Origin: Margaritispora aquatica
Taxonomy: Eukaryota > Ascomycota > Leotiomycetes > Helotiales > Discinellaceae
Assembly: GCA_007644065.1 (NCBI GenBank)
Contig: VJWN01000007.1
Span: forward strand, 310,001-374,000
DNA: 64,000 nucleotides
Direction: 5' to 3'
Made by a program: the position numbers and the translations under genes. Every line of letters starts with the position of its first letter. The stretch's first letter is position 1. The notes beneath the pieces were generated by a model, which was not told the origin of the DNA, made no database searches, and saw only the letters and a program-made list of their open reading frames with translations. Below, piece by piece: positions 30,401 through 64,000 of the stretch.

Positions 30401-33400
30401 GAGGGTGAATTGCCAGCTGAGGCCGATGCTTTTGAAGAAGAGGCTGGTGAGTCCTTGACTGTTGTGGAACAGAATGAGCTACAAATTGAAGGTGATACTG
30501 CCAGAGAGGAACTGGATGCCACATCAGCTGTGGTAGAGGACAACGGGCCGTTAGGATTAAAAGTGGTCGAAGAGGGGTCGCCCAAGGCCGAGTCAAGCGA
30601 AGAAACGAAGGTCGATAATTCTCCATTTGAAGAATACGATTCGGATCCCATAGGCAAAGAAAGTTTACCAGAGGAGATCCATGAGAGTAAGACCATCGAC
30701 GATACGCCTCCTGCCGAACCAGAGTCCCCAATCGCAGAAGCAATTGAAGCCAGTGATGACATAGAGCTCTACGAAGAGCCTCTTCAGAGTGAACATGCAG
30801 GCGAGCCTGATTCTAACGAGGATTTAACTCCAATAATTGATGGGGAGCACTCTGCTGAACTGGAAGAATTGCCTGTGGTTGCCGAGATAGTGGAGGATTC
30901 AAGTCTTGGAGATAATGAAATCGGAGATGATGCTCAATCCCAAGTCGCCTCCGAAGCTCAGGATGAGATCATTGAAGCCAAGGAGGTTGCTGAGCCAGAA
31001 TCAACTCCACCGGTTGAGAATGATGCTTTGCCAATTTCATTTCCAGACGCTGGGATTCAGGAAGACAAAAGTCTCGACGAAGCTGACACAAAAGACGAAC
31101 TATTGGGCGAAGATGAGATTGTCGACTCGAAAGAAGTCATTGAGCCAGAGCCAACTCTACAAGATGAGGCGTCAACTGAGTCACAAGAATTGGATTCGAC
31201 TGATGAGACACATGAGGATCCAAGCATACAAGCTTCAGACGCCAGAGAGGATTCATCTTTTCAAGAAGAGGTGATTCAGCCCAAGGAACCCACTGAATCA
31301 GAACCAGAGTTCTCCGAATCATCTCACGAAACTGACGGGAAGACACCTACTGACGCTGGAACCTTGCATGCGGTTGAGGAAGACCATCCGCTGCCAGAAA
31401 CCCTGGATGACTCTACGAGTTCTCCCGAAGACAAATCATCAGCACTAGATGAGAAGTCGGAGGAAGCTGAAGTGGATACCAATCTAGATATTCTAGACGG
31501 GCCATCAAGCCCAGAACCGGCTCAGGAAGATCTACCAACAGTTGAAATATTGCCAATCCTTGATCCCGTACTGGAAGATGGGCAGAACAGCATTGACGAC
31601 TCTGACTTGAAAGAAAATCCCCAATCCAACGATGAAGATTTAGATCTAGATTCCGAAAGTCTAGAGCTAGTCGAAAACGATTCAGTAGATGAGCCATCTG
31701 CTGGCATGGAAGTTGAGGAGAGCTCTGATGTTCGAGGCCAGACCGAAATCTCGGAAATGTTGGATTTACCAAGTGACGAAGATGTTCCAGGCGTTTTGAG
31801 TGTGCAGCACAATCTCAATGTGCCACAAGAGGTAGCACATTTGGATTCGGGCCCTGAAGAGATCCAAGATCCAATTGACCAGCTAAACGAGATATCTTCT
31901 GTAGTGGCAGACACTTTACCAACTGACAACACAACTGATACAGAGGAAGAAGTATTCAGCAACTCACCCGCTGATCAAGACGACGACACAGTGACTTCCC
32001 ATGAACCAGCAAATGAGGAACCACATCTTCAAGGCCACGAACTCGAAATCGCTAGCAGTGAGAGTGAGTTACCATTATTGGATGAAGAGAGTCTTCCAGT
32101 CGACAAAAAACTGCCAGCAGAACACCATGAAGACCAAGAAATTTCAGACGACGACGAACCAGATGTGAAAGGTTTACCATTGGACGAAAACCACTCAATA
32201 GCCGATTCCAAACAAGACAAAGGAGAAATTGACTCTCAAGGATTGGATGATCTAGCACATGATACATCAATTGGCGGAATTGAAGACCCCTTCTCCGATG
32301 CACCAGCATCAGATTCCCTTCCTCCACACCCTCAGGTACAATCATTTTCATACACATCCCCTCTTTCAAATTTGTCTCATATGTCAGAGTCTTATAACCA
32401 AGAACCCCAATTGAGAGAAACAGCATCATCACAGCTAGGGTATACACATGAAATAAATTCTCCTGGCTTCGAAGAGCAGGAACCTGTTTCCTCACCTTTC
32501 ATCGATTCAACTCGGGACCTTGTCTCTGGAGAACAATATCCTCAAACACCATCCCGCAACCCCTTCCCTATACACAGCTCACTACCTCCCTTCACCTCGC
32601 AATCACCTTACCCGACATATCAACAAACACGACAGCAATCTAGTTCGCAATCTTACCCCATAGATGGACACGAAGTCGGAGCAGACGTCGAGTCACTACC
32701 AAGCTCGCCAGCTGCCAATTTGCCCCAATTATCGCAATTTTCAACAGCGGTTCACAGCTCAGAAGCAGATTATAGCCAGCAACACAAATCGAGTCGACCT
32801 ACGAGCGCTTCTTCCGGTTTCGCATTTGACTCATTTTCACATGATGTAGTATCACCAATAGCCGATGCTGACCACAAACCGTCCTCGCCTGACATGGAAG
32901 ACTTTGACTTTCAGCCAAGAAATTTAGACCTCGAGTATGGGAGATCCTCTAGAGCATTGCCTGAGATACCAAAAACACAGGCGTTTGAACCTGTGGCACG
33001 ACAAGGAGAGGGCTATTCGAGAAGATCGACAATGGAAGATCATGCTGCACCCACTTCGGCTCCAGGAGCAGGCTTTTATGCCCCTTCTGCTACAGAAAGT
33101 CACTGCTCTGTCTCAGAGCATACCAACGAAGATACCGACCCATTCGCACCAATGTATGATGCATATTCGCCAACTGATGTAGTGAATGATTATGCAGATT
33201 ACACACCATCCGCTTATGGTCAAACACCTGGAGCAGGAAGGGATGCATACTTTGATGGTATCCCCGAAACTCAATCAATATCCATCAGTCGGCGACAAAC
33301 TGATGAGAATGATATTGCGACACCAACTACTATCCCGCAGCATGACCAATACTTCGAAACAGCACCTGTACCAGACTTATACAGCTCACATCGTAGCATC

Positions 33401-34552
33401 AGCCCACTTGCTGCGTCACGTTCTCCGCCTCCAATTCCACAGCACTCTAGCTATCTATCTCACGTCGACCAACAATACACCCAACAAGAAACAGACCGGC
33501 CTAACTTTACAGTTCCAGTCCAAAGCTCTCAATACGCACAATACGCCGGTGAGATCTCATCGGCTGAACCTAGCCCCTACAGCCAGGACGGCCTTTTAGA
33601 ACGAGAGTATAACCGCACGGACACACGTCAAACTCACAACGCTCGCTCTCCAAGAGATAGTGATATGTTGTCTTCAATTCAAGATCGTTATGCAAGTAGT
33701 CCTGAGCCAGAGTATATTGCTCCAAGAGACGAGAGATACATGCAAGAGTTAGTACCTGGACAACGTCGAGAATATGTTCCTTCACCTATCTCAAATGCCT
33801 ACGAGTTTCAATACGAGGATGAAGATGAAGCGGAAGAAGACTATTCGCCTCCAAACACAGGTAGCTTCCAGCAGTCGTTTAGTTCTACCAATCCATTTGC
33901 TGCACCGGCAACTCAGCCAGCATTCCCTACTTTGACTCCAGGAAGAGGCAGAAGGCAGCCAGAGAACTTCATGAGTCCCATCAGGGATGAGCAACAGGAA
34001 GAATATTATCCCGAGGATGCGGCAAGTGTGCAGCAGCGCTTTGTACCCATGGATTTACCACAGGGACGCTACAGGGGCTCTATAAGTCCAGCGAGAAATG
34101 AACAGAGTAATCGTTTCTTCGCCGACGATATGACTGCTACGGGAAGTCTACCTAGGGAACTGCCACAGAGAAGTTACGAACAGGATTTTGCCAATTCGAT
34201 TAGCAATGCGCGATTGTCAGAAGTTTATGATGGCGAAGAGTCAGGGGTACACTTTGCTGAGGCCAGGGTTCTGCAGCGACAGCTACCCCAAAGAGAGGTC
34301 TCATCGAGGGGCGTACGGCAGACCGGGTATGGAGGGTTTGATGAATCAGTAGTGCCAAGACGTGATGTCCAAGACGCCGGATATGGCGGCTTTGAGGTGC
34401 CAGAGGTTCCGACGAGCTCGAGGAGAGGTGTAGACCCACCAGTTACTCGCTCTTCGCAGCGGGGGATTTATGAACAATATGAAGAGGAGGAGGAGGAGGA
34501 GGAGGAGGAGGAATTCGTGTCACATACTGAAACTGGTCGATCACGAGATTAG
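24452..34552 (+). CDS. Giant repeat protein, 3366 residues, coiled-coil and disordered
   Basis: A single intronless frame with a good start context (accATGG). The layout has five parts. (1) A basic Ser/Lys/Arg N-terminus, then helix to about 140. (2) About 150-1410: degenerate repeats of 51-62 residues with the core SLEEHKxxLxxIQExHxxHxxSLDEIKSRS. (3) Two Gly/Ala-rich hydrophobic stretches (about 1413-1435, 1770-1795), each followed by LL-(S/T)-DD and flanking a block of 33-residue repeats (LxPIHxxLEQHGTxVKxL). (4) About 1800-2640: a very acidic Glu/Asp/Ser/Pro region. (5) A polar tail rich in Tyr, Gln, Arg and NPF/DPF motifs, ending near a Glu run. This plan suggests a long tether or scaffold. 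Leashin-type septal or cortical tethers are the nearest known idea, but I see no diagnostic match. Confidence 0.85.
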   Translation: MAPPSTHQTRPPLASRLRASFELKRSKSRNKGHSHSDSLSEDIVSPTAESNGSPNIPNGFLSGPGGQDGDTLRIAIDQAISSDAFQSAIAAHLAKLIKPSIKSALDTIQPLVEAVYTHEILLRKTNQNVEDALERIETTTNASRRVSRIDPDGGGELGEHRIAEEVPATREIPAASANPDLNHFKQLLEDHNTHNTSTLAGLSASIENTNAKIAEVAEGVADIKGTFGPGIETLTKSTEESSTTISALQAQLDQLKTDVAQILEAVGSDLGKNVQAIHERGVTATDTSVSSEHITKLDAISADIAALKEHPDTMVRFDSISTELASLKDAVQGSGTVSSEGFASVGAQLASVISAIEGHTTVLGEIKESPPHPELVAAIQQSNDSHALHSTSLAELKERSVGVSPSAEVGSSVDNSEVLSGLRSDLAALKENIETGLNSHGENLTGLGAKIDTISSTIEGHQASDTSAEILAAVQQSNESHISHATALEGLKSGDGDSAGALDLAPLHTEVSGIVSALAMHSTILDEIKVAHTTHALALDDIKSRTLEHGTMLEEIRSPGLPPVAPRGFPTPDASNLAALEIQVGSIVTTLSTHTAALADIGFKVGASNASTLSADTENPSLGDLTTVLEILDAHTAILNEIKEDVSAEILTAIHNIDQKQENCANLLVEVREGDVSEEVLTLLHGVGETANSHATDLQSLREVVQASHGTLEELKSKDVDVTAPTAVDLSPLEAQITALHSLLSEHKETLASIKEATAASHDLHISHGSSLEEIKSRSLEPAAVPDIVLPSFGGIESKLDNLALALDEHKETLSSIKDTTTASHDLHITHGSSIDEIKSRSLESAPPVTEVPSFEGIEAKLDSLIASLDEHKTTLAVIKESTIASQESHALHTAAFDDLKSRSVEPTPGTNMPSFEGMESKIDTLISTFDEHKSTLASIRDTTSASHDLHASHTTSLDEIKSRSVEAPDFSAFESQLGGIVTSLEEHKTLLGAIQESHNAQTSSLDNIKANSSEPAPAADFSGLDAQLAGIVASLEEHKVMLSTIQELHTSHATSLDEIKSRSVDAAPVEAPGLAGLETQIGGVIASLEGHKTILSSIQELHGAQASSIDELKAKSIDLEHVNDILASLEEHKVLLATIQEKTSASHDLHIAHGTSLDELKAKSVDPEHIGSILTGLEEHKSSLATIQEKTLASHDLHVAHSISLDEIKSRSMDSTSEAQPAANIEGLESHITGIVAALDEHKAILSELKDTTAGLAENHTAHTAILGEIKDSNVQSNESHASHAVVLSELKAVPAPASPDLSAMEAHLNIIITTLESQTETLSSLKEGPSIAEVHETIKQSHELLTTNHELLSSHSTLLSEIKESNSHEDITSSLVEIKTLITDSKSEIGSHGELVKDLHSSTKESHSSLTTAIAALAIGGTAGAGATALLTDDNDSSSDVMSELKIVRSIVEGSKEDIESLKSQLDAHSTTVTTSLSSLGDDIKTEIGTSGASTVEAVAAVHGDVKSIDLAPIHTAIGQHGTDVKGMAVQLEGIDGSVKAIDLSTIHSVLEQHGTEVKNLAVQLEGIEGGVKGLDLAPIHATLEQHGTDFKTLSTQVEEMDGNVKALDLTPLHASLEQHGDEVKGLVTQLETIDGSVKAIDLASIHSALEQHGTALEQHGANVQDISTHLENLDLAPLHAALELHGAGIDGIYTQLGSLDGSVKETGSHVLALHDGVHFNESGIQQLQSHAISRQVAPAEGAWFKRDKSPSPVLEKSNPAGHKDKHSSIPAALAGVLAGGVAVAGAAALLSDDDEKVDEEQPDFESSLEESIVETAVEAETPTEQAAELSPIVEESESLVEDDSTGDKSLGSAPAIQESGSPAAIDSNAEEVVHEAPVIEDSGLPAEADSPREKASVVAESESPVMVDSLEEVADSLPVTEEGELLSSEDEVPAVDVGEETNADEPQESVETSPIVEESELPVQFDMSGDDIIESASVHTEGELPAEADAFEEEAGESLTVVEQNELQIEGDTAREELDATSAVVEDNGPLGLKVVEEGSPKAESSEETKVDNSPFEEYDSDPIGKESLPEEIHESKTIDDTPPAEPESPIAEAIEASDDIELYEEPLQSEHAGEPDSNEDLTPIIDGEHSAELEELPVVAEIVEDSSLGDNEIGDDAQSQVASEAQDEIIEAKEVAEPESTPPVENDALPISFPDAGIQEDKSLDEADTKDELLGEDEIVDSKEVIEPEPTLQDEASTESQELDSTDETHEDPSIQASDAREDSSFQEEVIQPKEPTESEPEFSESSHETDGKTPTDAGTLHAVEEDHPLPETLDDSTSSPEDKSSALDEKSEEAEVDTNLDILDGPSSPEPAQEDLPTVEILPILDPVLEDGQNSIDDSDLKENPQSNDEDLDLDSESLELVENDSVDEPSAGMEVEESSDVRGQTEISEMLDLPSDEDVPGVLSVQHNLNVPQEVAHLDSGPEEIQDPIDQLNEISSVVADTLPTDNTTDTEEEVFSNSPADQDDDTVTSHEPANEEPHLQGHELEIASSESELPLLDEESLPVDKKLPAEHHEDQEISDDDEPDVKGLPLDENHSIADSKQDKGEIDSQGLDDLAHDTSIGGIEDPFSDAPASDSLPPHPQVQSFSYTSPLSNLSHMSESYNQEPQLRETASSQLGYTHEINSPGFEEQEPVSSPFIDSTRDLVSGEQYPQTPSRNPFPIHSSLPPFTSQSPYPTYQQTRQQSSSQSYPIDGHEVGADVESLPSSPAANLPQLSQFSTAVHSSEADYSQQHKSSRPTSASSGFAFDSFSHDVVSPIADADHKPSSPDMEDFDFQPRNLDLEYGRSSRALPEIPKTQAFEPVARQGEGYSRRSTMEDHAAPTSAPGAGFYAPSATESHCSVSEHTNEDTDPFAPMYDAYSPTDVVNDYADYTPSAYGQTPGAGRDAYFDGIPETQSISISRRQTDENDIATPTTIPQHDQYFETAPVPDLYSSHRSISPLAASRSPPPIPQHSSYLSHVDQQYTQQETDRPNFTVPVQSSQYAQYAGEISSAEPSPYSQDGLLEREYNRTDTRQTHNARSPRDSDMLSSIQDRYASSPEPEYIAPRDERYMQELVPGQRREYVPSPISNAYEFQYEDEDEAEEDYSPPNTGSFQQSFSSTNPFAAPATQPAFPTLTPGRGRRQPENFMSPIRDEQQEEYYPEDAASVQQRFVPMDLPQGRYRGSISPARNEQSNRFFADDMTATGSLPRELPQRSYEQDFANSISNARLSEVYDGEESGVHFAEARVLQRQLPQREVSSRGVRQTGYGGFDESVVPRRDVQDAGYGGFEVPEVPTSSRRGVDPPVTRSSQRGIYEQYEEEEEEEEEEEFVSHTETGRSRD
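26640..28180 (+). repeat. Degenerate tandem repeats coding 51-62-residue units
   Basis: Within the giant gene a unit built around EEHKxxLxxIxExxxxSHDLHxxHxxSLDEIKSRS recurs about ten times or more. The first two units I measured end to end are 51 and 53 residues. The DNA has drifted more than the protein, so the repeats are old and under protein-level selection. Confidence 0.75.
28970..29520 (+). repeat. Tandem 33-residue repeats (LAPIHxxLEQHGT type)
   Basis: Five or more units share DL(A/S/T)xIHxxLEQHGTxVKxLxxQLExIDGxVKAI. The unit I counted is 33 residues. The block lies between the two Gly/Ala-rich hydrophobic segments of the giant protein. Confidence 0.75.
34484..34512 (+). repeat. GAG/GGA microsatellite coding poly-Glu
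   Basis: A run of GAGGAG units near the 3' end of the giant gene encodes about ten Glu residues. It is a likely site of length variation between strains. Confidence 0.85.
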
Positions 34553-49423: not shown

Positions 49424-51057
49424 ATTTCCCGATTTCCAATGCTTAAGTGTTGTTCCAGTATAATTGAAGATTGTTGCTGGATGATGTTTACTTGTTGCTC
49501 GACCTGTTTGATGTCGACGATGATAGGTAAGACTCAAGAGCTTCCCATGGCAAGGATGTTGATTTGTCAGCAGCCAACTCTATTTCATCCTCTCTCTCGG
49601 TTTTCTTCCCTGGACTTAAAATAATAAGCGCACATTAGCCAGGAAAGTTACTTGCTCACTGTTCGATGTCTCTCGCAAAATTACCAACTACTACATGTGT
49701 TCTTGATGGAGCTATTTTGGGGTAGAAGAGCAAAGGGCAGTAAGAATGCAGAGCTTCAACATTTCGCTATTCCTCTCTGAGGTGAAAGGTACATATCAAT
49801 ACAATATTACTTCACTTCGGCCAGTACGTGGAAGATCTTAAAACGTAATGATGATACGACGGACACGCACTCCCGCACTATTTTCCTTCTGTCATTGTGC
49901 CTTTATACTATTTGAAGTGTGAGATATCCCTTGGAAGCTCCAGGAGGCTTTCTGGCATAGTTCCATTTAAGAAACGAATTTTGACATTCGTTGCACAGTT
50001 GAGATACTGATGACACAGGATGCAGCATTCATCAATTCTGCCACACATTGGTGATTTGAAACGGAAGTATCACATGCAATTGCTCATTTACCTTGTTCGT
50101 CACAGCACTCTTCTTCAAATTCCTATGCATATCTCTGCAACGTCACCATCTTAGGAGGAGGTGGGAAAGGCAGTCATTAAACACAGCTTCGTCAACAATT
50201 TGCATCGCCTTCATGGCCTCCTCACATGAGAAGATTCCGTATGTCCTTCGTAGGTTGCTCAACCAATATCGACGTATAAATTCAACACCACCAATTCGAG
50301 CAGGAGGATAAGATATCACGCAGAGCCATCGCCAACACATTATGTCCTCTTGTAAGTCTCCTCATATGGCATATTTGCGTGGTGATGCAAGATTTCGCAT
50401 GCGTCTTGCAAGAAACTTGACAGGCATCAATTTAAATGCTAAAATTCCTCAATCTGAAGAAACGGAGATCGTCATCAAGTATAGCTTTACTAACACTTTA
50501 CATCCTCAACTTGACTCTTTACAAATATCGGTTCTGTGATGATGTTCCTTTGCGTTGGGCTGGCATGAGCAAGTAAGATACGAAAGAATTGCCACTGAAG
50601 TGCATTCTATCAGCGCATTCGTAACCATCAAGACTACCAACTACCACATGCCTTTCTATCTAACATGAGAGCCGACATTAACCTGTCTGACGATGTTACA
50701 TTTTGGTCTGGAAGCCTAGGTAAGTATGGAGCGCAATCTGCAGTTATGTTCTAGCTAAGGTGAGTTTGGATAGATAGAGCAGAAAGGACTAGATCAGAAT
50801 ATTTGTTCGAGGTTTTTCATTCTCATGCCAACAATCTTCCCTAGTCTAGTTGTGAAGTCTTCTAAGAAGACCACATTACCTGTCCAGTTTCCATTATTAC
50901 CATAAGACGCCCCGAGAACACGCACTTGCCTGACATGCACAGAGATATAGATCATCAATTGATAATCTTCAATCCCTTAGTTGCCCACCAGATCCACAAG
51001 ATGGTACTCTTTTTTCTCTCGCGTTTTTCCTATAAAGGAGGTGTTGTCTCGCCAGCT
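49424..51057. other. Intergenic region upstream of the thioesterase gene
   Basis: About 1.6 kb with no supported gene. Two CAACTA words (near 49684 and 50639) are at background density here, unlike the dense cluster that begins at 51058. Confidence 0.45.
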
Positions 51058-51068
51058 AGTTGTTCTTA

Positions 51069-52378
51069 CTAGTAGATGGACATGTGTGAGTCGCCTTCTT
51101 CAGTAGAATTGGCTGCCTGGACTTGTAGACTGCTATTCAAAATGCGATCCGCAACTTCCTTGGACACTTTAGCTCGAATAATGGTAGTTGATTCATCGAG
51201 TAGGGTTTGAGGTGCATTGACGGCTGTCGAAAGAGCCTGAATTGTGGTCAACTGCTCACTAGTTGTGGCTCCCGACAACTGTCGTAAGAACTCGGCGGGA
51301 TCGCTCAGTTGAGAGGCGATAGGGCCGTTATTCTTCGCCTTGACCATCATGCCAAGGACCAAGCTCCCTCCCAAATCCAACAAGTTGTCACGTTCAGTGG
51401 CAATGTCAGCGACACCTAGTTGCTCGTGAGAAGCTGGGCTGCTAACACCTCCATCCAGTCTGCCTTGCTTTTTGCTCTTGAATGTGAAGATTTGACTGAT
51501 TCGCTTTTTAACAAGTTGGAAGCTAGAGAGCTGCTTGTCTTTCTTAGGGACATGCAACGAGTTGTCAGATGCCTTTGCCGACACGGTTCCAGTATCAGAC
51601 ATACCTCCCATTCTCGTGTCCTGGGAACGGGTCTGGCTAGTTGCAAGTTGAGCACGATCGTTCAACAAGGTAGGTTCTGTAACCGCGATTGCAGTAGTTG
51701 GTGGCATCAAGACACTGGAAGGTGTTGAGCCAGCTCCTTTGATGTTAGTTGTCAACAAGACATCAGAGGGTGGTAATGCATATTCTTCGACATTAGTTGT
51801 TGACGAGCCACCTGAAGTTCGTGAGGCAGTTCCTCCAATACTGGCTGGCGGGTCGATAACCAGTTGAATACCAGTGACCATCTTAGAGCTGTCCTGGACA
51901 AGATCGATGTTGGATCCAGTGCCAACAACTTGAGCTGCCTGGGAAAGCACATCCTGAACGCCAATAGTAGCATCTGTGCCGGCCAGTTGCGCTGAAGTAA
52001 CTTCTTCATATGCAATCTGAGTAGTTTGCGAAAAGATAACAGGAGCTTTTGGCATCTCAGGAACCGCAGCACCGACAAAGCTAGCGGTAGTTGTAGGTGA
52101 GTTCTGAAACTGACCATTGAAAACTCCAAAGAGTTGTGATGGTGAGAATGTTGCTCTGGGATGACTCTTTCCTTGATAGTTGGTCTTTCGAGCGAAATTG
52201 GTAAGCAAAGAAGAGGACCCCGCGCTGGTTGTGTCGTCAAGTTGCATCGAATCGTCGACCTCACCCTTGATCTCCGAAATGGTGTGAATATTCCCAGCTC
52301 TAGCTAGTTGCGGACGTGTCTTATGGTAAGAAACAACAGATCCATCGGGTGTAGTGAGATCAATTATTTCATGCGACG

Positions 52379-52409
<31 letters not shown>

Positions 52410-53305
52410 GATAACAACGACAGCCTTTTGAGGATTACCATTATTTTCATCCGCCTGATGGATACCAGAACCACCACTAGTTGCGCCAGAGACACCAGTA
52501 ACAATCCTTGAAAACCCTGAGGTATTTTTGGCGACAAATTCTGACACAAGACGAATATTGTCCTCGTCTTTAAGAAACTCTCTGATAGAAGCGATATAAG
52601 CTTGATGGCCATTGCTAGTTGTCAAGTCATGACCGGTCAATAGCCGATGGTTGTTGGCCATATCAATTTTGAAAAATGCCTTCAAAAACCACACAGGCTC
52701 ATATCGGAACTTAATACTAGCAACCCCGAAAACAGAGTCACCAATGAGATTGACTCTGCCTTTATTGTGGTTCACTATGGAACCATCAATGGTAATTGCA
52801 GGCGAGCCAACCGATCGACGACTTCCGCAAATCTCGCCGTTGAGGTTCCATTCGCTACCGTTATAGCACTGGCGGACTTTATGTTGGACCCCAAGGAGCA
52901 TCATGAGAGCTACCACCGCGTCTTCATAGAATTGAAAAGCAGGGTATATCTGATACCAGTTTTCCTTCGTGACGCCGGCGACTTTCGATAGTCTCACTAG
53001 TTTAGGTGTGAGCCAGTAGTTGTTCCCATCACCGTGACCGTCTGCAGGCTGCCAGGTCTGGAAAACTGTGTTTGGATCACTTTGCACTTTTCGTGCAGCT
53101 TCGATCTCAGGCGAGGCCTTATTTGTGTGACGGCGTCCAACATGCGGTGGGGCTGCTGGCAATGGGGGTAATCTGTGATCGATGGCGAAGACTGGGGCTA
53201 GTTGCAAAATAACAACTGCACCTATGTTGTATTAGTAAAAAGTTATATGACTAAGATTGGAAAGAAAAACTTACCACTCCGGGGATCACGCTGTGTAATT
53301 GACAT
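51069..53305 (-). CDS. Gene A: uncharacterised 727-residue protein with poly-Asp tract
   Basis: I do not recognise this protein. Two coding exons (53305-53275, 53221-51069) give 727 residues; the short first exon reads MSITQRDPRS and joins in phase. Residues about 60-215 look folded (YWLTPKLVRLSKVAGVTKE, AVVALMMLLGV, Cys-Tyr-Asn-Gly and Cys-Gly-Ser-Arg-Arg loops, then FRYEPVWFLKAFFKID). Residues about 280-310 hold VVVIDDDD, a run of about ten Asp, then HEIIDLTTPDG. The two hydrophobic-acidic patches resemble SUMO-interaction motifs. The middle is Ser/Thr/Ala-rich and probably disordered. Near residue 590 is a basic patch (KKRISQIFTFKSKKQ), and the C-terminus is helical. It may act in the nucleus. 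Its mRNA carries dense CAACTA hexamers. Confidence 0.75.
52380..52410 (-). repeat. ATC/GAT microsatellite coding poly-Asp
   Basis: Ten consecutive TCA/ATC units on plus encode an Asp run in gene A. The tract is a likely length polymorphism. Confidence 0.9.
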
Positions 53306-54124
53306 ATTGAACAAGATCGGTCCTTAGTTGCCGAGCATTTGTCTTCAATAGTGTACGGTGGACCTGTTGAGAAACTACTTCCGTTGATTTGATAGTTGTT
53401 CGAAAATTGAAATACTGTACAGATCATAAGTTAGCTTGGTATCAATCCAAAGCAAAACGAACTAACCTCGACCGTGGCCACAAGTAGTTGCAGAACACTG
53501 CTGAACCAGTATAGGCGCGATTATGGACCCTTAGGTGGTGGAGGTTGTCTTGTGATTCCTAGTTGCGCACTTTCGATCTACATTGTATAAGGTCAGTTTC
53601 AAAAATCTGCAAAACAATTTCTGAGCGTCATTGTACAACTCACGTTGAATAGAACAAACCCCAAAAGACAAAAGACTAACTTACAACGGTACCTTCCAGT
53701 TAACTGGTTTCGCCGGACTTAGAATAAGAAATCTGAATATAGGATGTATGGGTGGTTGTAGTCGTCCTAGAACTCGCAATTGCGCAAGACGATCTGTATA
53801 GGAGGTCAGCTTTGCGTATGATTTGAATATGCAAAATCACTCCTGCCCAACTTGTGCTGCGCACCAAAATGAAAACCAATCCCAAGAAATGATAGAATAA
53901 CTCACAGCCGTAGAATTAGATGACTAGTTGCGTCGTATTTGGAGAAAGTTCCCAGTTGTAAATTGTGTGCGTGTTGAGAAATTGTCTTCCGCAAGTGGGC
54001 CTGTGCAGACGTACAAATCGTAGTGCCAATTAGGCACTGCGAGTTGTGTAGTTGCGATTTTGTAGCCAAGCTATGGGATTTTGTTGTTTCTGCAGATCGG
54101 ATTGTAGAAAAAAAAAGGTAGTTG
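53306..54124 (-). other. Gene A 5' untranslated region with three probable introns
   Basis: No frame here continues into gene A, yet consensus splice pairs occur: 53905-53794 (GTGAGT to TATACAG), 53684-53607 (GTAAGT to TTGCAG) and 53466-53415 (GTTAGT with a GCTAAC branch point to GTACAG). CAACTA copies at 53325, 53393, 53485, 53560, 53935, 54049 and 54119 all fall in the predicted exons or upstream of the first donor. The transcript therefore probably starts near or beyond 54.13 kb. Confidence 0.5.
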
Positions 54125-57100
54125 TGAGGTGATAGGGAAAGGTGGGAGAAGGCTCGCGGATGGAATTTATACAGGCGTTCTGGCGAGGAAAAATAAATCG
54201 CCAAACAACAACAAGGCTCTATCCCAATATTTTCGTGAGGCTGAATTGGCTAAGATGGTTAAATGGCACATCATGGGATCAATATGAGGAGGCTTTTATA
54301 TTATTTATTGCATGTTAACTATCATCGATGAGCATATTTGCTCGTACCTTCAAAAAAGGCAGCTAATCTTAAAATACGCAAAACTTCAGATAGACAGGTA
54401 ATTGTGGAATATTTCTTACTAGTCTCACGGTGACCAACGGTTTGAATGAAGACTGGCTATGTTTAGTAGTGTTGAACCATAACTTCGTTGTGAATGAATA
54501 AAGTCTTGATTTCCATATCTCTTTTACAGAAAGGAGCAAATGTTTGCAAATAGCAGTAAGGGCACGAACTATTGAAAGCTTGCTCGAGGAGTAATGAAGA
54601 ACACCTTCATGTCTCCCTCACAGCGTGGCCTAGGAGCAAGACATATGGAGGTGTGAATCCAACCACAAAAATAACGTGAAAATCGGTAAAATGGAGGAAG
54701 GCTGCATTTCTGCTTGCCAAAGGCCACAAGCCCAACGAGAAAATCACCAATAGATACATTTTCGTGTTACATACAACAATCATGAGCACTATGCCACATG
54801 GAAGAGTTACGACATATGGATGTTTTAAAGCAACATGTATATGCTCAGCCCAGTGGAGTGTATTTGCCCTCCAAGCAGGGTATCATATCCTACTATTCCG
54901 ACTCAATATCTATGCGAGTGTCATGATACAGTGCTGTTGTCGAGCAAGGAATTCAAGACAGGCTCTCAAGTGAAAATGTCGTCGAGACTCAGGTTCGCTT
55001 ATTTAAAATGCGAAGCCTTGACCCTGTAGCTTTGCTTCCAACATCATTTGCGTGCCACATTCCTTACGTACACCACCAATATACCCTAGATATATATCTA
55101 TTTTGTTTTAAATTGTGACTTTACTTGCTTTACATAGATTTTAAAGTCTAGGGACTCGCTATACCTATAAATGACCCGGTCATGGAGGACTGCATGCAGC
55201 AGGCAGGAATTAGGGATCAGTACTGTTAGTCCTTGCCTACATACATTTTGTCTAATCTCTGGAGAAGCTCAAGAAGTTATAGTACGCGGTGGAGTCTACG
55301 GATGTAAGTACTTACCTTAGGCGAAGAAAGAGTGACTTATCTTGACACAAGATAGAGTAAATTGCCTTCGTCTTATGTCCAAGCTTGGTAGACAGAAGGG
55401 CAGCGATAGAGCTACCTCTATAATAGCGTTCTCAATAAGGGGCATCAGACGCGTTTAATCCTTCTAGATTTCATGACCGACGCTTACAATAGGAAATGGA
55501 AAGCTTCAAGGGTATTTTGTCATTGATGTGGTTCTTGGTTATGTCTTATTCTATTATTGTTTGTGCAATTGTAAGTATCATTTTACTTCAAGGAATTCGG
55601 CAGGGAAATGTCTGTTTTGATAGTCAAGATCAGAAAGCAAAAGACATGTGAGCTTCAATCCAATAAAGAGATGAAGAGTCTTTGAGAAGAGAATATTGCA
55701 ATTCTGTGCATGAGACTGACCACATCCAGTAGCTGGTAAGTTCGCATCACTAGAATCAGGCTGAAGGAACTATGGATATCAAGCTAAGGGGAGCATGATG
55801 AAGACCTCTTTTCTTCTCAGTCAATAAATCCTGCTTCGCTACGTCAGGAGATAGTTCAGAACAGTTTAAATAATCTAGAAGAAGAAACATGTCGTTGAAG
55901 ATGAAACGAGGTTGGGGAAATGTTCAATTGGAAGCAGTTTTGATATCCGCTTTTCGAGGGCTAGCTGCTCTACCTTTGATGGTTCTGAGATACGGCATCA
56001 GAGGTATTTGTAGAAGCCGATCTTATCAATGAACTAAGATGTGACAGCTCCAAGCTATCGACTTCTTCGCTCAAGTCCGTAAGGGATGTGAAGAGCTGAA
56101 GAGCTGCAGATTAGCAGTAGCTTTCGAATGCGGGCAATAGAGCGATCAATAATGACATGAAGAACCTTGCGTTCTTGAAGTTTACATTGCAGTCCCATGA
56201 GAATTGTATACGGCCTTTAACATGACCAAGTCTTCGCCAGAGTATCCGAACGAGAGTTTTTCCATGAACGAAATCTCGGCGATGTTGTAAAGATCTCTGA
56301 AGCGACAACGACAGAAATGGCAGTGTTGTCTCTCTTTGGCCTGCCAATCTCTTCCACAAAGTGGTCGTATAAGGAAGAAGGTAGACGTCGCAGAAATAAT
56401 CCAAAGCGATAAAACCACTTCGACTGAACTTGCAGCAAGGTTTTGTGGTCGAGACTCAAGGATAAAAGTAGAGTTCTCTTGTCCACCTACCTTACCATCG
56501 GTGGGGATCTCCTGTTAGAAGCCGCAAGGGCTTAGAAGGAACATAAAGGGAGGTTCCGTAGTCGAGGCTCAACCATCGGGTAGGTTCCTTTGGTCCAAGG
56601 TATTCCTCATCGAGGAAACCTCTCTTGGTAGAAGCAGCCCACATAGGGTGGAAATTCCTAAGACGCAGCACAAGTGATAGCTATCAGAGCACGCACGACC
56701 TCCAACTTCGTCTCTTCTTTAGCATCGTGCGCTAGCTGGGGCATATTATCTTGATTCTCGATAGCATATTCCGATGGCGGGTTCCACGCATTCAATCATT
56801 TTTTGGAGTACGTTGGCCGGGTTAACAACCATGCTTCTGATAATTTCGTTAGCTAAGCTAGGCGCAAAAAGGCTGGTCAGATGAGATATTGCTAATGGTG
56901 AGACTGTATTGCTTCTTACTACTGATTTCTGGCGGACAAGCTACCCTGAGGGGTGATTTGGCTCGAAGGTCTGTCTTGCCATAATACTGCAGCAAATGTG
57001 CGTCAAAGTTTAGGCTACAGTAAAATACTCTATAGGGTCGGGCTTGAGTCTATAACACAGGCAGTGTACTAGTTTCTGGATGAAACGAGGCTGTGATCGA

Positions 57101-57325
57101 GGGGTGGTGCAATGCCGAAGAGGTTGGTGAGCCAGATATTTAGAAACACTGTCGCGCTAAGAGATCGTGATAGGGGGGCAATGGTAAGACATAGAACCTT
57201 ATTAAATGCACACACACAAGATAATAAGTTGTGGGTTCATCTGTCCTCTTCTTTAAGCAGATTCATGGAACCATACTTCATTTCCATCTCCGCTGAGAGC
57301 TCCAAAACAATTCCCTTCAAAGTCG
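54125..57325. other. Three-kilobase gap between genes A and B
   Basis: I see no supported gene. Short frames on both strands overlap without motifs, and no intact mobile element is evident. The hexamer that saturates the flanking genes is absent. Confidence 0.5.
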
Positions 57326-59257
57326 TCAAAATTGTACAATCATTGCAACTACCTCTTCTCCAGCCCTTGACACTTGGACACACATTCTTCTTGCCTCTTT
57401 ACATCCTACACATCCCTCCATAACAGAAATTTCATCAGAAAGCCAGTGGCTAGTTGTTAGAATCGACCGCAAACATAGATTCAAAGTATCGCTCGAATCG
57501 CAATACTCTTGCCAGTATTGATAGTCGCATTCGTGTTGCTTTGACATGATACACAAACACTCTTCCAAAAGCGCCAGCGATGTTCCAGGACCTAGTTTGA
57601 CGCTTTTAACAATACTACTCATGCCTTCACACAAAGACACGACGACTTGATCGACCACAAGCTCTCTAACTGGAGAAACTACTCGTTGTCGCTTGGCATT
57701 GGGCGCTGGTACCGGATGGCTATCGATCAAGGCATTGGAGCGAGGCGATCCTCTGTCGAATGTCCTGTGACTAGTTGATGACAGAACAGAGGCCTTTTTG
57801 GCCACAGCCACACGGGAGTCGGGTAGGGACAAGATCCTAGAATGGCCTGCCGTTGTACTTGTAGCTTGGGAGGAGAGGGTCTTAGTTTGATTCGCTTGTA
57901 ATACTGCTCGTATATCCTTGTGTGGCTCGATCTTGGCAAGGGATGCCAAAGTAGTTATGCGGGAAGCGTCAATTGAGTGCAATGAATCAGCTTCCGTGGA
58001 AAAGGTTGGACTAGTTGGTGTGGCCAACTTCTGTGGCACTTGCAGACTAGAGATATGAGGGCCAGATATATTCGCAGATTCTCTATCTCTTTCTAGTTGT
58101 ACGACTTGCGGCCGATATATCTGCCCATACTCACTTTCCACGGACGATTTTGGTGGCGATTCCAGATGTTTTATTTCCTCTATTTGTTATTGTTGGTTTT
58201 AGTTTTCGCCATACTCGAGAGGGAGACTCACTTTTCTGTGTAGTTGACCGCAAATCGACCTTTTCTCGGTCTTTGTTTGCCTTGATAATGCAGTCTCTTT
58301 CAATCTCCAGGTCAACGACACGTTTTTCGGACTTCCACAACAGAATCAAAAATGTTGTATTTGCTTTCGACGACCTTTCCACTTCCACGATTTTTGCGTC
58401 AAGCTTTGTAACTAGTCCGTTAGATTGATCCTCAGCAATTCGACATCTCTCTCGTAGTTTGTCGACCCATGATTTGTGCTCAGCAAGTTCTCCAGTATGG
58501 TCCTTCGCCTCTTTCTCTAGTTGGGCTATTCGCCTTGCCTTGGAAGAATTCTCTGCACGTAAGCTAGTCAACTCATTTAGTTGTATGCGCTGCGTGTATT
58601 GCGAGTTTTCGACAAGACGAGTGGCATCCAGTAGTTTGGTGAGTTGATCTTCGACGACCTTGTCCAATGTCTCTTTCATGGCTTGTTGCAGTGTATTCCC
58701 TTTTTGAATCTGGGCCGAGATCTCTTTGTTCTGTTATTTGTTAACCACAATTTCTTTTAACTGAACAAACTTACCTGTGTTACTAAGTCTTGCTCGTAAC
58801 TCAGTGATTCGATTTGTGTCTGGAGGTTTTCCTCCTTCTTCTTCAGTCTTTCACGAGTAGTTGCCCAAATTTCTTCTTCTTTTTGACGACTTATGGCTAG
58901 TTCTCTTATCAGATCTTCCTTTTGGCTTTGCATTGTAGATTGGAACAAGATCCTTTCATTATCAAGCGCTTCTCTGTCCTGGTCTAGTTGTCGTGATTTC
59001 TCGTCCCAATCATCATAGATTTCGTTTGCATTGTTGACAAATGCTTTAACATTTGCATCTAAAGTCTCAATAATACCCTGTAGTACTGTACACAAGTTGG
59101 CATAAGCCCTGAGAACGGTATGGATATTGTCAACTGTAGAAACACCTAGTTTTGTACAATACCGATCGTATTCGCTTTCGATTGCATGTACTTGTTGTAT
59201 AGACTTTTGACGATGAGAATTTAGTCGAGCAATATGGTCTGCACCGATGTTATCCAT
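57326..59257 (-). CDS. Gene B: 611-residue coiled-coil protein
   Basis: I do not recognise this protein. Three exons (59257-58775, 58730-58232, 58179-57326) join in phase; the introns are 44 and 52 bp. The N-terminal half is mostly coiled coil (DEKSRQLDQDREALDNERIL, TTRERLKKKEENLQTQIESL, KARRIAQLEKEAKDH). Around residues 330-460 it turns Ser/Thr/Pro-rich and basic. The C-terminal 150 residues (SPVRELVVDQVVVSLCEGM onward) look folded and contain many cysteines, including VMEGCVGCKEARRMC. There is no signal peptide or membrane helix. It is divergently paired with coiled-coil gene C across 270 bp, suggesting co-regulation. Its exons carry ten sense CAACTA hexamers or flank them. Confidence 0.75.
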
Positions 59258-59527
59258 GATAGTTGTTGATGATTAAATGTTCATTGAAGTTAGTGATAAT
59301 CCGTTTCTTTTGTTGGTATTAGTAGAAGTTCAAAGGTTTCAAATTAGGAAGGAAACGCCAGCTCACTGTCCCAGTTTCTTACTTCTATAACCACTCCCAA
59401 GGTCTTTATATTTTTCTCTCTAAAACAATCCAAACATCTTTGCTTTTCTACAACTGGATTTGAATTGCTGTATTATCGAATTTTAATTCAAACAACTAGA
59501 ACATTTCCCTTTAGCCATACTCAGATC
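59258..59527. promoter_or_regulatory. Divergent promoter between coiled-coil genes B and C
   Basis: This 270-bp region separates the two ATGs. The sense hexamer points leftward at 59261-59266 (gene B leader) and rightward at 59493-59498 (gene C leader), so the two transcripts begin between these points. Pyrimidine-rich stretches near 59395-59450 precede gene C. Confidence 0.6.
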
Positions 59528-62500
59528 ATGAGTTTACCTGTACCGGGACCAAGACCGGACCCAGCTTTGGCGGCACAACAATTCTGGGACCAACACTTGC
59601 CAGCCCGACAACTTCGAGTTGAAAAAGGTTTTGCAACTATTAGAACCGTGAATCAGAGGGTCTTGGCTGTAGTTGGTCAAATGGACTTTTCAGTAGCTCA
59701 GTGGAAAAAGCTCGACCAACAACGCCAAAGAGGGGTTGATTTCAAACAACAACACCAAGAGAAAGTCAACGCAGTGCTTGAAATTCAAGGTAAATTAGTT
59801 CAAAGATCGAGAAACCACTGGCTGACAGTCTACAGAGAAAATCAAAGCTCTGCCCGCTGCCTCGCAACCAATTCTAGACAATGGAAGCCTCAACCCAAAC
59901 TTCGAACCTGTTTCGGAACAACTACTCGAAGCTGCATTCTCACTAATTGTCTACGCAATTACACAAAATCCATCTCTGGACATTCCCTCTGATTTACGAC
60001 AACTGTTATTGGCTAACGTCTTCCACGATGCGGAGGAACCAACAACTAATGTCTCCCTACCCAAACCTGGCTTTTCCGACGTACAAGCATCCAACTCCAA
60101 TACTACTCCGAATATGCCTACTCGATTCAGTTTCAATAATGCTGCGAAACTAGTAGCAGTAAAACAGCGTATAGCTGTAAGGGAAAAGAGGATCAGTTCG
60201 CTACGAAGCCAACTAGACGAGTCCTCTTCAGAAAACATCAACAGTCTTCACCGTACCTTGAATACAGCAGCATCATCTTCACAAAGTGATTGGCAGACTT
60301 TGTACAGACAAAAAGAAAAAGAGTATGGAATTGTGAAGCAACTACTCGTGGAGGAATGCAAACAGCATAAAGACATCTTGAAACAAATGGATACTGATTC
60401 AGGAGGCGCTCTGACAAAGAATGCTTGGAAAGTCAAAGCTGTATGGGCAGAAGTTCGCAGACTTGAAAAGGCTTTGGAAGAAGAACGAAAGGCGACGATT
60501 GCACGCCCACTCCCCAATACCATCAATGCAACTAGCCGGGTAAAAGAACTCGAAAGTCAATTGAATGCCGCCAAGAATCGACTTCGTACCCAAGAGAATT
60601 TGTTGGGTGAGATGATGGACAAACAGACTGCGAAAGCTATTGAATACGCCGATGCATTGAAGACAACTAAAGCAGATGCTAGTCAACGAACAACACACCA
60701 AATCACAGTCCTGAAAGGTCTTCATAAAGCCACACTCGACACACTTCACCAGAACTTCGAAGATGCAACTAAGGGCATGAAAGGTCAAGTTGATGATCGC
60801 GATAAACAACTCAAGGTTCTGCAAGCCAATCATGTCGCCGCCATCAAACGCCTCGAGAGTAAACAACAAAGTACATTGAAAGAGCTACAACTACAGCACG
60901 ATCAAATCGAAATTGAGCTCCAAGAGCGTGTCGGTCGTGAGTCTGAATTCCGGAGCGATTATGAGACTGCAACGCGAAAGATGTTCGACGATCTTGAAGC
61001 ACAACTAGACAAAAAAGATCACACGCTTGAAGGTCTGCAACAAGGCATTGCTCAAATGAATCACCAATTGGACCAGAAATACATTCCAGCTATTGGAGAG
61101 TTGCAACAATTTTCAATGGCACTATTGTCAGAGAATGGTCAACTAGAGAATGAAGTTGATCATTTGTCTGATCAGTTGCATTATATCACAGCCTCGGCAC
61201 TACGAACATCCTCACATCTCATGTCTGCCAACCATCGTCTGTCCATTGCCACCAACCAGAGAAACCGTGCATTTCGAAACCAAGTTCGTACAACAAAGTC
61301 AAAGCAAAAGCTTAGGACAGCTTTTGGAATCGCCTCTGATTTGCTCGTTGAAACCGCAGTGGAGAATACTCGACTTCAACGCCAAAGCAAAGTCGTATCT
61401 TTGCGTGCAACTACTCTTGCCAGCGAGAGAAACGAAATTCAAGGAGAGCTTCGGATTGTTAAAGATAAGCTCACATCAACTAGCAATGAGCTTATTACGA
61501 GGACTCTGGAAAGAGATAGGGTGCAAGGGGAGCTTACCTCAACTAGCAATGAGCTTACTACCAGGACGTTGGAAAGAGATAGTGGACGAGGTGAGCTTAT
61601 ATCAACTACCAATGAGCTTATCACGAGGACTCTGGAAAGAGATACGATACAAGGAGAGCTTCAGAGTGTACGGGGTAAGCTCACGTCAACTAGGGATAAG
61701 CTCACTAGCAAGAAATTGGAGAGGGCCAAAGTACAAGGAGAGGTTCAAATTATGCAATATAAACTTACGTCAACTAATAACGAGCTCACCATCAGGACTT
61801 CAGAGAGGACTAGAGCTTATGAACAGCTTCGAGCTGTACAAACCGAGCTTACGACAACTAAAGATGATCTTCTCTCTAAAATACAACAGCGAAATCAAGC
61901 CATGGTATCCCAAGCATCTGCAGATCAAAGTCATAAGCGAGTTAAACTGGCTTTGGAGACTAGTCAAGCGGCATCTTTGATACTCGCTCGCGATAGAGAT
62001 GTCTTGAAAGACCAGATCCAACGTGCCACCACAGCTTTCATCAAGGAAAAGACTCATACTCATAGTCTAACAGTTAAGAATCTCGCCCTCACAGCAGAGG
62101 TCACTAATCAAAGGGACGAGCTTGAGATCCTACAACAAAACCTTACAATCACAGAACATCAACTAGCCCTCACTGCTGCAAAACACGACAAAGCATTTCA
62201 AGAAGTAAAGCAACTACTGGCTTCAGAGGAAAAAGCTCGCAACCTTTCGCTTCAATATCTTCGCGAAAGAGAACAAGCTCGAGAGGAAGTTAGCAATACG
62301 ATGAATAAAGGGCAGAGAGCACTAGTTGTGGCACTTCAAGAACTACTTCCTGTTTGGTATCCCACCAACATCTTGAAAGAGGCCGCTACAATCCTCATCG
62401 ATGCACCTACTCACAAATCATTCGAAAAGTGTACATTTCCCGAGTTTATGTTCCGAAGTCGGTCTCCAAACAACGTGATCTACTGCTTCCCTGTATCAAT

Positions 62501-63224
62501 GTATGCTAGCGCGATTATGCTTTTCGTCAGAATCCATCGCCGTCAATTCGGAGACAACACGCTTCAACTAGTGTCTGCATTGATTAATGGTGTTGAAACT
62601 TGTACCGAAGTTTCGACAATATACTTGTTAGTTGGTACGATACAACGGTATATGGGGATGTTGGCCACATTGGAAACCACGACGGACTGGACTTTTTTGT
62701 CCTTAGCGATACTTGAACTATGTCATCGGATGTATGAACGTGTTCCAGGACTCCAAGCAGCAGCCAGCCGTTTCGATCTCCTGTCACGACTACAACTATC
62801 TATATCTGGAGCAGTAGCTACAACACAGATTAAGCCATTGTTCAAAGTGCGACTCTCTTTGGAGTTCATCAACACGCTTTTTGATGTTTACCAAGCTGGA
62901 TTTCTCGCTCATAAACTTGGTGTATTTTGTACAACTACTGGTTCAGATGTTGTATTGTTTATGGCTGCCAACTGTCGCGAGCTTACTTTGATCCGGAAGA
63001 CAATGTTTGTTCGCGAGGATATCCAAATTGGGGAGGTGACATATCTTGTCGATGAAGGACCCGGATTTGAGCGACTAGTGATCTCGGTGGCGGCGAAGGA
63101 TAGAGATTGGTGGGAGGACTACGTGGAAGTCTATCAGGGAACTAGCGCAACTAGCAAGAGGCAACTAGAGTCTATATACTCTGGTGCCTATTTCCGTGTA
63201 CTAGAACGTATTGGTACATTTTGA
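59528..63224 (+). CDS. Gene C: 1216-residue coiled-coil protein with C-terminal globular domain
   Basis: I do not recognise this protein. Exons 59528-59789 and 59836-63224 join in phase. Residues 1-140 are helical (MSLPVPGPRPDPALAAQQFW). Residues about 150-915 are almost continuous coiled coil, including near-perfect 21- and 28-residue repeats at about 622-765 (TSTSNELITRTLERDRVQGEL). Residues about 920-1216 form a different, folded domain with hydrophobic helices: LLPVWYPTNILKEAATILI, FPVSMYASAIMLFVRIHRRQF, TIYLLVGTIQRYMGMLATLE and LGVFCTTTGSDVVLFMAANC. It ends YFRVLERIGTF. This plan suggests a structural or tethering protein with a binding head. It shares with A and B the sense-strand CAACTA loading (27 copies). 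Confidence 0.78.
61456..61870 (+). repeat. 63-bp and 84-bp tandem repeats inside gene C
   Basis: CAACTA copies here start at 61477, 61540, 61603, 61687, 61771 and 61855, spaced 63, 63, 84, 84 and 84 bp. That is 21 or 28 codons, exact multiples of a coiled-coil heptad. Each unit encodes a version of LTSTSNELITRTLERD-x-x-QGE. Confidence 0.85.
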
Positions 63225-64000
63225 TACATGGATAGAAGCGATTATACAACTAGAATAGAGTGGTTTTGTGGAACTGTATATAATGCAGAGCAATTTAACC
63301 GTTCATTGTCAATCATCTCCTTTGGTTGTTCTGGTTGTATACAATATATAATATGCATTACCTATCCACAGTTTGGATAATGAAAGAGGACATTGAGTAC
63401 TTTTCAGCTCCGAGTTCTATTGTGACATCCCACTTAATTTGGGTGTTGTCACTTCGAGTTCAAGTCAAAGAAGTCTAATGAATAAATGCTTTTATGAGAG
63501 TTTATTGGAAAAAGGCAAATGCCAAATTCATGTGGAAAACTAGCAAAAACATTAGCGAATTCGTAATTGGGCATATACAAGGTATTGTACCTAGGTTGTT
63601 TTCGTGTCACTGTTTGAGTCAATATTAAAGGAGGTGAAGTTTAGTCTAGGTTATATTTCACTACGAGACCATTTTATTCTTGGTGTTCGCGTCTGTTGAG
63701 TACCGGTCAAAATTGTGTCAGACGGGCCATTTTATACGGTTCATCAGATTTTCAGGACCTCAGGTCAATATCTCAACTCTTCTAGTATTTGCTATTTGTG
63801 TTCATACGTTGCTGTTCTCTTCTGGGGTGTGGGGCAAGCACTGCACTTAGAGCATGTCCATAACCAAGCTTCAAATGAATTTATTGTGAAAGAGATGGAA
63901 ATAGTATATGTCAGTGGTATATCCTATAAATATACTTCAGTCTCTATATTATGTTCTATTGGCATGAGAGTCATGCTGATTCAGCAAAGAAGAGGGCGGG
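63225..64000. other. 3' flank of gene C
   Basis: One last sense CAACTA at 63247 lies just after the stop of gene C. Beyond it the sequence is AT-rich with no supported gene to the window end. Confidence 0.45.

What the first reader, a model, noticed from the sequence alone, without database searches (positions are those of the whole stretch)
51058..63252. Sense-strand CAACTA hexamer saturates three adjacent genes
Seen: about 59 sense copies against 4 antisense in genes A, B and C and their UTRs, and about eight copies found in the other 51 kb. Chance predicts about three per strand in this 12 kb. Orientation follows transcription on both strands, copies fall in all three codon phases and in UTRs, and I find none in the defined introns. 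That argues for a nucleotide-level signal acting in mature RNA. Known analogy: clustered UNAAAC hexamers (DSR) in fission yeast meiotic mRNAs, bound by the YTH protein Mmi1 for selective RNA removal. Inference: these may be tagged transcripts under a comparable control, or members of a selfish or stage-specific gene class.
Basis: partly seen in the sequence, partly recalled or inferred. Interest (0 to 1): 0.93.

Follow-up and report, generated by a model that had tools for sequence, protein, structure and literature searches.

The report
Hexamer-saturated orphan gene cluster in fungus
A cluster of fungal genes of unknown function is filled with one six-letter word (CAACTA), nearly always in reading direction and not found at such density elsewhere in the genome, as if their messages carried a private molecular tag.

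Summary
In window genes A, B and C, CAACTA occurs 61 times sense and 3 antisense. The cluster continues beyond the window to genes D and E1-E5 (C47:360.8-414.4 kb): 132 sense copies against 5.6 expected in nine predicted genes, E1 and E2 being weak. Whole-genome pair and triple searches, which sample gap sizes, find no comparable locus in 42 Mb.

The signal acts at nucleotide level: it exceeds synonymous shuffles (86 copies; mean 19.8, maximum 31 of 300), distorts codon choice and protein sequence, fills the predicted leader of A and stops at the edges of these genes.

A and C have no database relative, while an adjacent gene has 3175.

Best reading: a multi-copy RNA tag read by an unknown binding protein. 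It works like fission-yeast DSR but is not DSR. The only relative of A found, A' on another contig, seems to carry a different sense hexamer, TTAGCA, suggesting locus-private tags; this rests on one gene. Absence from introns was not confirmed.

The parts
50847..54200 (-). Gene A, predicted transcribed region: 24 sense and 0 antisense CAACTA in C47:360840-364250; CDS exons 53275-53305 and 51069-53221 (727 aa); 3' flank copies at 51057 (starts 12 bases before the CDS end on the + ruler), 50978 and 50847
53306..54190 (-). Predicted 5' leader of A with seven hexamers (54119, 54049, 53925, 53560, 53485, 53393, 53325); it holds four ATGs when unspliced, so 'untranslated' is a prediction; splicing within it is my reading of splice-like sites
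57326..59290 (-). Gene B, coiled-coil-like by eye, 10 sense and 1 antisense CAACTA; 3' exon structure uncertain (model of 534 aa, or the open frame continues to 57326)
59480..63260 (+). Gene C, 1216 aa, coiled-coil-like by eye, CDS 59528-59789 and 59836-63224; 27 sense and 3 antisense CAACTA including 5' flank (59493) and 3' flank (63247)
61468..61900 (+). Degenerate repeat units (63 to 84 bp) in gene C, delimited by eye; six successive units each carry an exact CAACTA (61477, 61540, 61603, 61687, 61771, 61855) while flanking codons differ
54251..57325 (.). Interval between A and B: 0 copies on either strand (0.8 expected per strand); the enrichment is confined to the genes

Best explanation
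CAACUA (with a preference for A before it and G or C after it) is a reiterated, sense-oriented recognition word in the transcripts of one linked cluster of genes of unknown function. A sequence-specific RNA-binding protein, not yet identified, occupies these transcripts from leader to 3' end and fixes their fate as a set: retention, decay, localisation or translation. Shown here: concentration at one locus, sense orientation, restriction to these genes, selection at nucleotide level strong enough to bend codon choice and protein sequence, and spacing more even than chance. Inferred: that it acts as RNA, that a protein reads it, and that the outcome is co-ordinated repression or release of the cluster, for instance outside and inside the sexual cycle.
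For: 132 sense copies against 5.6 expected in nine genes, while the 18 single-mismatch words together give 198 against 103.9. Coding copies 86 against a synonymous-shuffle mean of 19.8 and maximum of 31 in 300. Gene by gene, CAACTA in A, B, C, D, E3 and E5 exceeds the best hexamer of each of 42 control ORFs (21 of the 42 had no hexamer with five copies). QL dipeptides 13.3 per 1000 residues against 6.1 from composition; 40 of 74 QL are written CAACTA against 4.9 expected; in the next phase 50 of 106 against 8.1. Seven copies in the predicted leader of A. Spacing CV 0.68 against 0.92 simulated (P 0.0005); 3 gaps under 30 nt against 12.8 (0 of 2000), as expected for separate footprints. Intervals between tagged genes at background: 24 kb with 4 and 6 copies against 6.3 per strand. 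Six of six repeat units of gene C, taken by eye, keep the exact word. No tandem array explains the copies in E1-E5.
Against: No expression, RNA or binding data. Hexamers are not predicted to be more accessible than same-composition 6-mers (P 0.42). Four copies fall in predicted introns. E1 and E2 carry nearly as many antisense as sense copies (6 and 3; 5 and 5; two of the five in E2 belong to the overlapping end of E3). E4 lies within the control range and E1 and E2 gave no CAACTA result in the per-gene test. The regular repeat units of C and D were not taken out of the spacing test, which also ignores codon phase. Gene models are my own. Minor clusters exist elsewhere: 7 sense and 0 antisense in 10 kb on C2, 8 and 3 on C8 (L020, L017, stretches fetched because they had pattern hits). 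No reader protein was identified.
Confidence: 0.5

Rival explanations
1. Co-transcriptional or DNA-level signal: the word is read on nascent RNA or on the non-template strand (early termination, chromatin nucleation, licensing against silencing), so that mature mRNA is irrelevant.
For: Sense orientation and restriction to the genes fit equally well; four copies lie in predicted introns; the cluster abuts an AT-rich, RIP-like block, a place where silencing matters.
Against: The word is not a palindrome, and density is kept through CDS and 3' flank. Nothing run here separates nascent from mature RNA.
Confidence: 0.2
2. Selfish gene complex (meiotic-drive type): the tag marks the complex's own messages so that they escape or exploit the host's RNA surveillance. 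This is a claim on purpose and can be true together with the best explanation.
For: Linked genes at one locus, A and C without database relatives while the adjacent conserved gene has 3175; adjacency to a RIP-like block.
Against: No population or cross data; ORFs that look like ordinary genes to me lie between the two tagged groups (not searched for relatives); no known domain in the Pfam scans.
Confidence: 0.15
3. A mutational or insertion process writes CAACTA (a 6-base insertion keeps the frame) without function.
For: Six bases preserve reading frames; copies occur in more than one phase.
Against: Intervals of the same region are at background; strand follows each gene; the exact word persists in six diverged repeat units; spacing is over-even.
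Confidence: 0.1
4. Protein-level cause: recurrent QL and TT peptides or codon usage of coiled-coil proteins create the word.
For: QL is enriched in these proteins.
Against: Synonymous shuffles do not reproduce it; CTA writes 40 of 62 Leu codons after CAA but 70 of 479 elsewhere; copies in the predicted leader and flanks; two phases with different peptides.
Confidence: 0.03

Closest known systems
[quoted passage not shown]
   Same: A reiterated hexanucleotide in transcripts, several to many copies per gene; passages of PMC5807050 report activity above 5 motifs and degradation at eight or more. Selected as sequence rather than as protein.
   Different: Another word (TNAAAC near background); one 54-kb locus instead of dispersed meiotic genes; tags run through leader, CDS and 3' flank and distort protein sequence; YTH matches exist on C45 and C49, but nothing ties them to the tag.
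STAR-domain binding sites (ACUAAY, NCUAAC; HOW and relatives)
   Same: Short word including ACUA; passages of PMC12868882 describe CUAAC motifs in bound mRNAs.
   Different: Here CAACUA is invariant with G or C preferred next; ACTAAY gives 19 sense against 6.9 expected, CAACTA 132 against 5.6.
Periodic An/Tn clusters of Caenorhabditis germline genes (recalled, not looked up)
   Same: Gene-wide sequence pattern beyond the protein code in a special class of genes.
   Different: Recalled as a DNA-level, intronic, not strand-specific pattern; here one exact sense word.

Membership tests
DSR/Mmi1 selective-removal system | Clusters of UNAAAC in the transcript | tested here: not met
   TNAAAC 29 sense, 7 antisense, 21.3 expected over nine genes
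DSR/Mmi1 selective-removal system | More than about 5 copies of a hexamer per target RNA | tested here: met
   5 to 27 sense copies per gene, of another word
DSR/Mmi1 selective-removal system | A YTH-domain protein in the genome | tested here: met
   Four matches over the PF04146 cut-off, at two places, C45 and C49
DSR/Mmi1 selective-removal system | Targets dispersed over the genome | tested here: not met
   7 of 10, 11 of 67 and 17 of 60 pattern hits lie in one 54-kb locus
DSR/Mmi1 selective-removal system | Binding by the YTH protein and exosome-dependent removal | not testable with these tools
   No RNA or protein data
STAR-protein target RNAs | ACUAAY as the enriched word | tested here: not met
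   ACTAAY 19 against 6.9, far below CAACTA 132 against 5.6
Tandem or microsatellite repeat | Head-to-tail arrays explain the copies | tested here: not met
   Only short arrays in A-C and D (largest with the word: 3.1 units in C, 2 units in D); none in L012, which holds E1-E4 and most of E5
Fungal meiotic-drive gene complex | Transmission distortion in crosses | not testable with these tools
   No cross or population data
Fungal meiotic-drive gene complex | Linked lineage-specific genes | tested here: inconclusive
   A and C without database relatives (only the candidates sharing most words were scored); the other seven were not searched

The most novel reading that the evidence does not exclude
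Locus-private RNA barcodes: gene sets of this fungus each carry their own hexamer through their messages, with a co-evolved reader (the A family is the one protein common to both tagged loci found), so that a locus can recognise its own transcripts. CAACUA marks the C47 cluster and UUAGCA marks the A' gene on C2.
Probability: 0.2. Interest if true: 0.97.

Novelty: new variant of a known kind. Interest (0 to 1): 0.83.

Why it matters
A word strong enough to reshape codon choice and amino-acid sequence across a set of neighbouring genes, and concentrated at one locus, implies a trans-acting reader under strong selection and a form of co-regulation written inside transcripts rather than in promoters. 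It can be tested directly by recoding. If the second hexamer in A' is also real, fungi may use locus-specific RNA self-labels, which bears on how selfish or stage-specific gene complexes are recognised, silenced or protected. The signature (local sense-hexamer excess over synonymous shuffles) gives a simple scan for such loci in any genome.

Tried and rejected
Codon or protein cause: rejected. Tandem repeat as general cause: rejected. RNA accessibility of the hexamers: no difference. Structure prediction of the A domain (with A') and of a 293-residue piece of E1: mean pLDDT 34.7 and 42.2, unusable, so no fold search was made. Pfam scans of pieces of the nine genes: nothing above a cut-off. Shared upstream words: 7-mers in at most 6 of 9 upstream stretches, no control run, not pursued. 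Pairing to 18S rRNA: the 18S in L033 contains TAGTTG, but the flank preferences do not match its flanks; judged by eye and dropped. Paralogy among the nine genes: best protein match E 0.002 over 38 residues, not convincing. The AT-rich block beside E5 was first taken for a centromere; two 91% identical 430-bp repeats starting 6.6 kb apart make a RIP-mutated LTR element likelier. Literature: no held paper has CAACTA with motif and fungus, or CAACUA with RNA-binding, as whole words; CAACUA as a substring is in 595 papers, 15 listed, one read in passages. Searches were seen as listings, with passages of two papers.
Full report
OBSERVATION. The window is C47:310001-374000 of an unnamed 42.36-Mb genome in 49 contigs. 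Its rDNA spacer looks Helotiales-like to me (recalled). The conserved gene beside gene A has, among the 120 relatives listed, mostly names that I recall as Leotiomycetes. About 1.8 were expected in the three genes, and no single-substitution word comes near it (the highest being CAACAA, 17 against 5.6).

EXTENT. Stretches beyond the window showed that the cluster continues. Genes, from my models: A (C47:361069-363305 plus leader), B, C, then D (397735-399496), E1 (404744-406221), E2 (406402-407550), E3 (407752-410008; two C2H2-like fingers by eye, Pfam zf-C2H2 at 15 bits, below its cut-off), E4 (410607-412310) and E5 (412586-414326). Sense/antisense counts over stretches that I delimited: A 24/0, B 10/1, C 27/3, D 22/2, E1 6/3, E2 5/5, E3 18/2, E4 12/1, E5 8/1. 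E1 and E2 are weak; two of the five antisense copies of E2 lie in the end of E3, which overlaps the counted stretch (positions). Total 132 sense and 18 antisense, expected 5.6 (3.9 with the narrower background). Intervals inside the locus are at background: 0 and 0 between A and B, 4 and 6 in the 24 kb between C and D (6.3 expected per strand), 2 and 1 between D and E1. Seven arbitrarily chosen 10-kb stretches of other contigs hold 0 to 6 copies per strand (L022-L028).

GENOME-WIDE. A triple pattern gave 10 hits: 7 at C47:363-410 kb, 2 in a simple repeat on C3, 1 on C23. A second triple gave 3 hits, 1 of them here. Pairs with one longer word gave 67 hits, 11 of them here, and 60 hits, 17 of them here (54 kb is 0.13% of the genome). 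These patterns sample gap sizes, so a weak single gene elsewhere can be missed; one search listed only the first 100 of 185 pair hits. Two other places, C34:265.4 kb and C2:1772.5 kb, appear in both pair lists. Stretches fetched because of pattern hits show minor clusters: 7 sense and 0 antisense in 10 kb on C2 (L020), 8 and 3 on C8 (L017). None approaches the locus (22 in 2.7 kb of D).

NUCLEOTIDE-LEVEL SELECTION. With proteins fixed and synonymous codons shuffled within each gene, 86 coding copies compare with a mean of 19.8 and a maximum of 31 in 300 (this call used the main coding blocks, and one short exon of C was out of frame in it). In a per-gene test with 42 control ORFs of the same genome, the best hexamer of any control reaches log10 P -3.2; 21 of the 42, mostly shorter, had no hexamer with five copies. 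CAACTA reaches A -5.6, B -4.0, C -8.4, D -4.5, E3 -4.3, E5 -4.1, but E4 -2.9, within the control range, and E1 and E2 gave no CAACTA result. The word bends proteins too: QL 13.3 per 1000 residues against 6.1 from composition (controls 4.0 against 3.6); 40 of 74 QL written CAACTA (4.9 expected); in the next phase 50 of 106 sites (8.1 expected). Seven copies precede the predicted ATG of A; that leader holds four ATGs when unspliced, so its being untranslated is a prediction. Nine copies lie in 1478 bases of 3' flanks and 21 in 1888 bases of 5' flanks whose limits I drew, partly along the hexamers. Six of six repeat units of gene C, delimited by eye, hold the exact word.

FORM OF THE SIGNAL. Flanks prefer A at -1 (69 of 132) and G (52) or C (45), not T (10), at +7. 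After masking CAACTA, GACTAG (17 against 2.1) and ACTAGT (17 against 2.3) remain, possibly weaker variants of the site. Spacing in CDS is more even than random placement: CV 0.68 against 0.92, P 0.0005; gaps under 30 nt 3 against 12.8 (repeat units were not removed and codon phase was not modelled). Predicted accessibility is not special (P 0.42). Intron exclusion is not established: 4 copies in 1131 bases.

ORPHAN STATUS. Searches with the main open frames of A and C scored the 7993 and 7991 candidates sharing most words, among 5.8 billion proteins, and found none at E 0.001. The adjacent palmitoyl-protein thioesterase found 3175 of 7996, many of them fungal, so the database holds relatives of this fungus. 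The other seven proteins were not searched there.

A SECOND WORD. The only relative of A found in the genome is A' on C2 (29% identity, E 1.5e-6; BLASTP of the part after an in-frame stop, E 5e-4; no further relative). A' does not carry CAACTA. Its strongest sense word is TTAGCA: 9 copies in 1.9 kb, 0 antisense there, two of them after the stop codon, no tandem array. In a scan of 2.5-kb windows its log10 P is -8.3; of 384 background windows the lower ones come from two stretches with tandem arrays (L021 and L002), and the next is -7.0. In the synonymous-shuffle test, on 568 of 652 codons, it reaches -4.7 against a best of -3.2 in 42 controls. TTAGCA is not enriched in the CAACTA genes (4 against 4.4), and pair hits show no further TTAGCA gene next to A' (2 of 42 hits are in A', none near it). 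This is one gene, the kinship is distant and the word was chosen after looking, so it is a lead, not a result.

MECHANISM. Orientation, confinement to genes, leader and flank copies and even spacing fit a multi-site recognition word for an RNA-binding protein. Whether it represses, retains, localises or licenses is open. The nearest working model is DSR/Mmi1: passages that I saw give the motif as UNAAAC and the copy-number dependence (PMC4077057; PMC5807050). Word, distribution and degree of coding distortion differ, so it is not filed as DSR.

VERDICT. Observation confirmed and extended; a nucleotide-level, transcript-oriented signal is supported; DSR membership is not; function is inferred.

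Noticed in passing
L009/L010, C47:377.8-386.4 kb: Degenerate noncoding repeat around GCACGG (consensus like TATTAATTCATGCACGGCGT): 19 plus and 10 minus copies, mostly in one orientation up to 382.4 kb and mostly in the other from 384.6 kb, between the two tagged gene groups.
   Followed up: partly
L029/L030, C47:415.5-426 kb: AT-rich block (GC 8-32% in 500-base steps) next to E5, holding two 91% identical 430-bp repeats starting 6.6 kb apart; probably a RIP-mutated LTR element.
   Followed up: partly
L038:4809-4811 (C2:1224.8 kb): The A-like coding sequence of A' is interrupted by an in-frame TAG; decay, an unseen intron or mRNA editing cannot be told apart.
   Followed up: no
window 24452-34552: Single open frame of 3366 aa with many repeats of a motif like SLEEHK.
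   Followed up: no
L021 and L002: Tandem arrays (26 units of GTGATGG, 8 of TACC; a CAACTA/CCACTA repeat) give strong one-strand hexamer excess: the main false positives of a naive hexamer scan.
   Followed up: yes
L020 and L017 (C2:1768-1778 kb, C8:785-795 kb): Minor one-strand clusters of CAACTA (7 and 0; 8 and 3 in 10 kb) outside the main locus; genes there not examined.
   Followed up: no
L033 (18S rRNA): The 18S segment reads GGAAGTAGTTGCAATAACAGG, which differs from the form that I recall as conserved in fungi; from memory, not checked.
   Followed up: no
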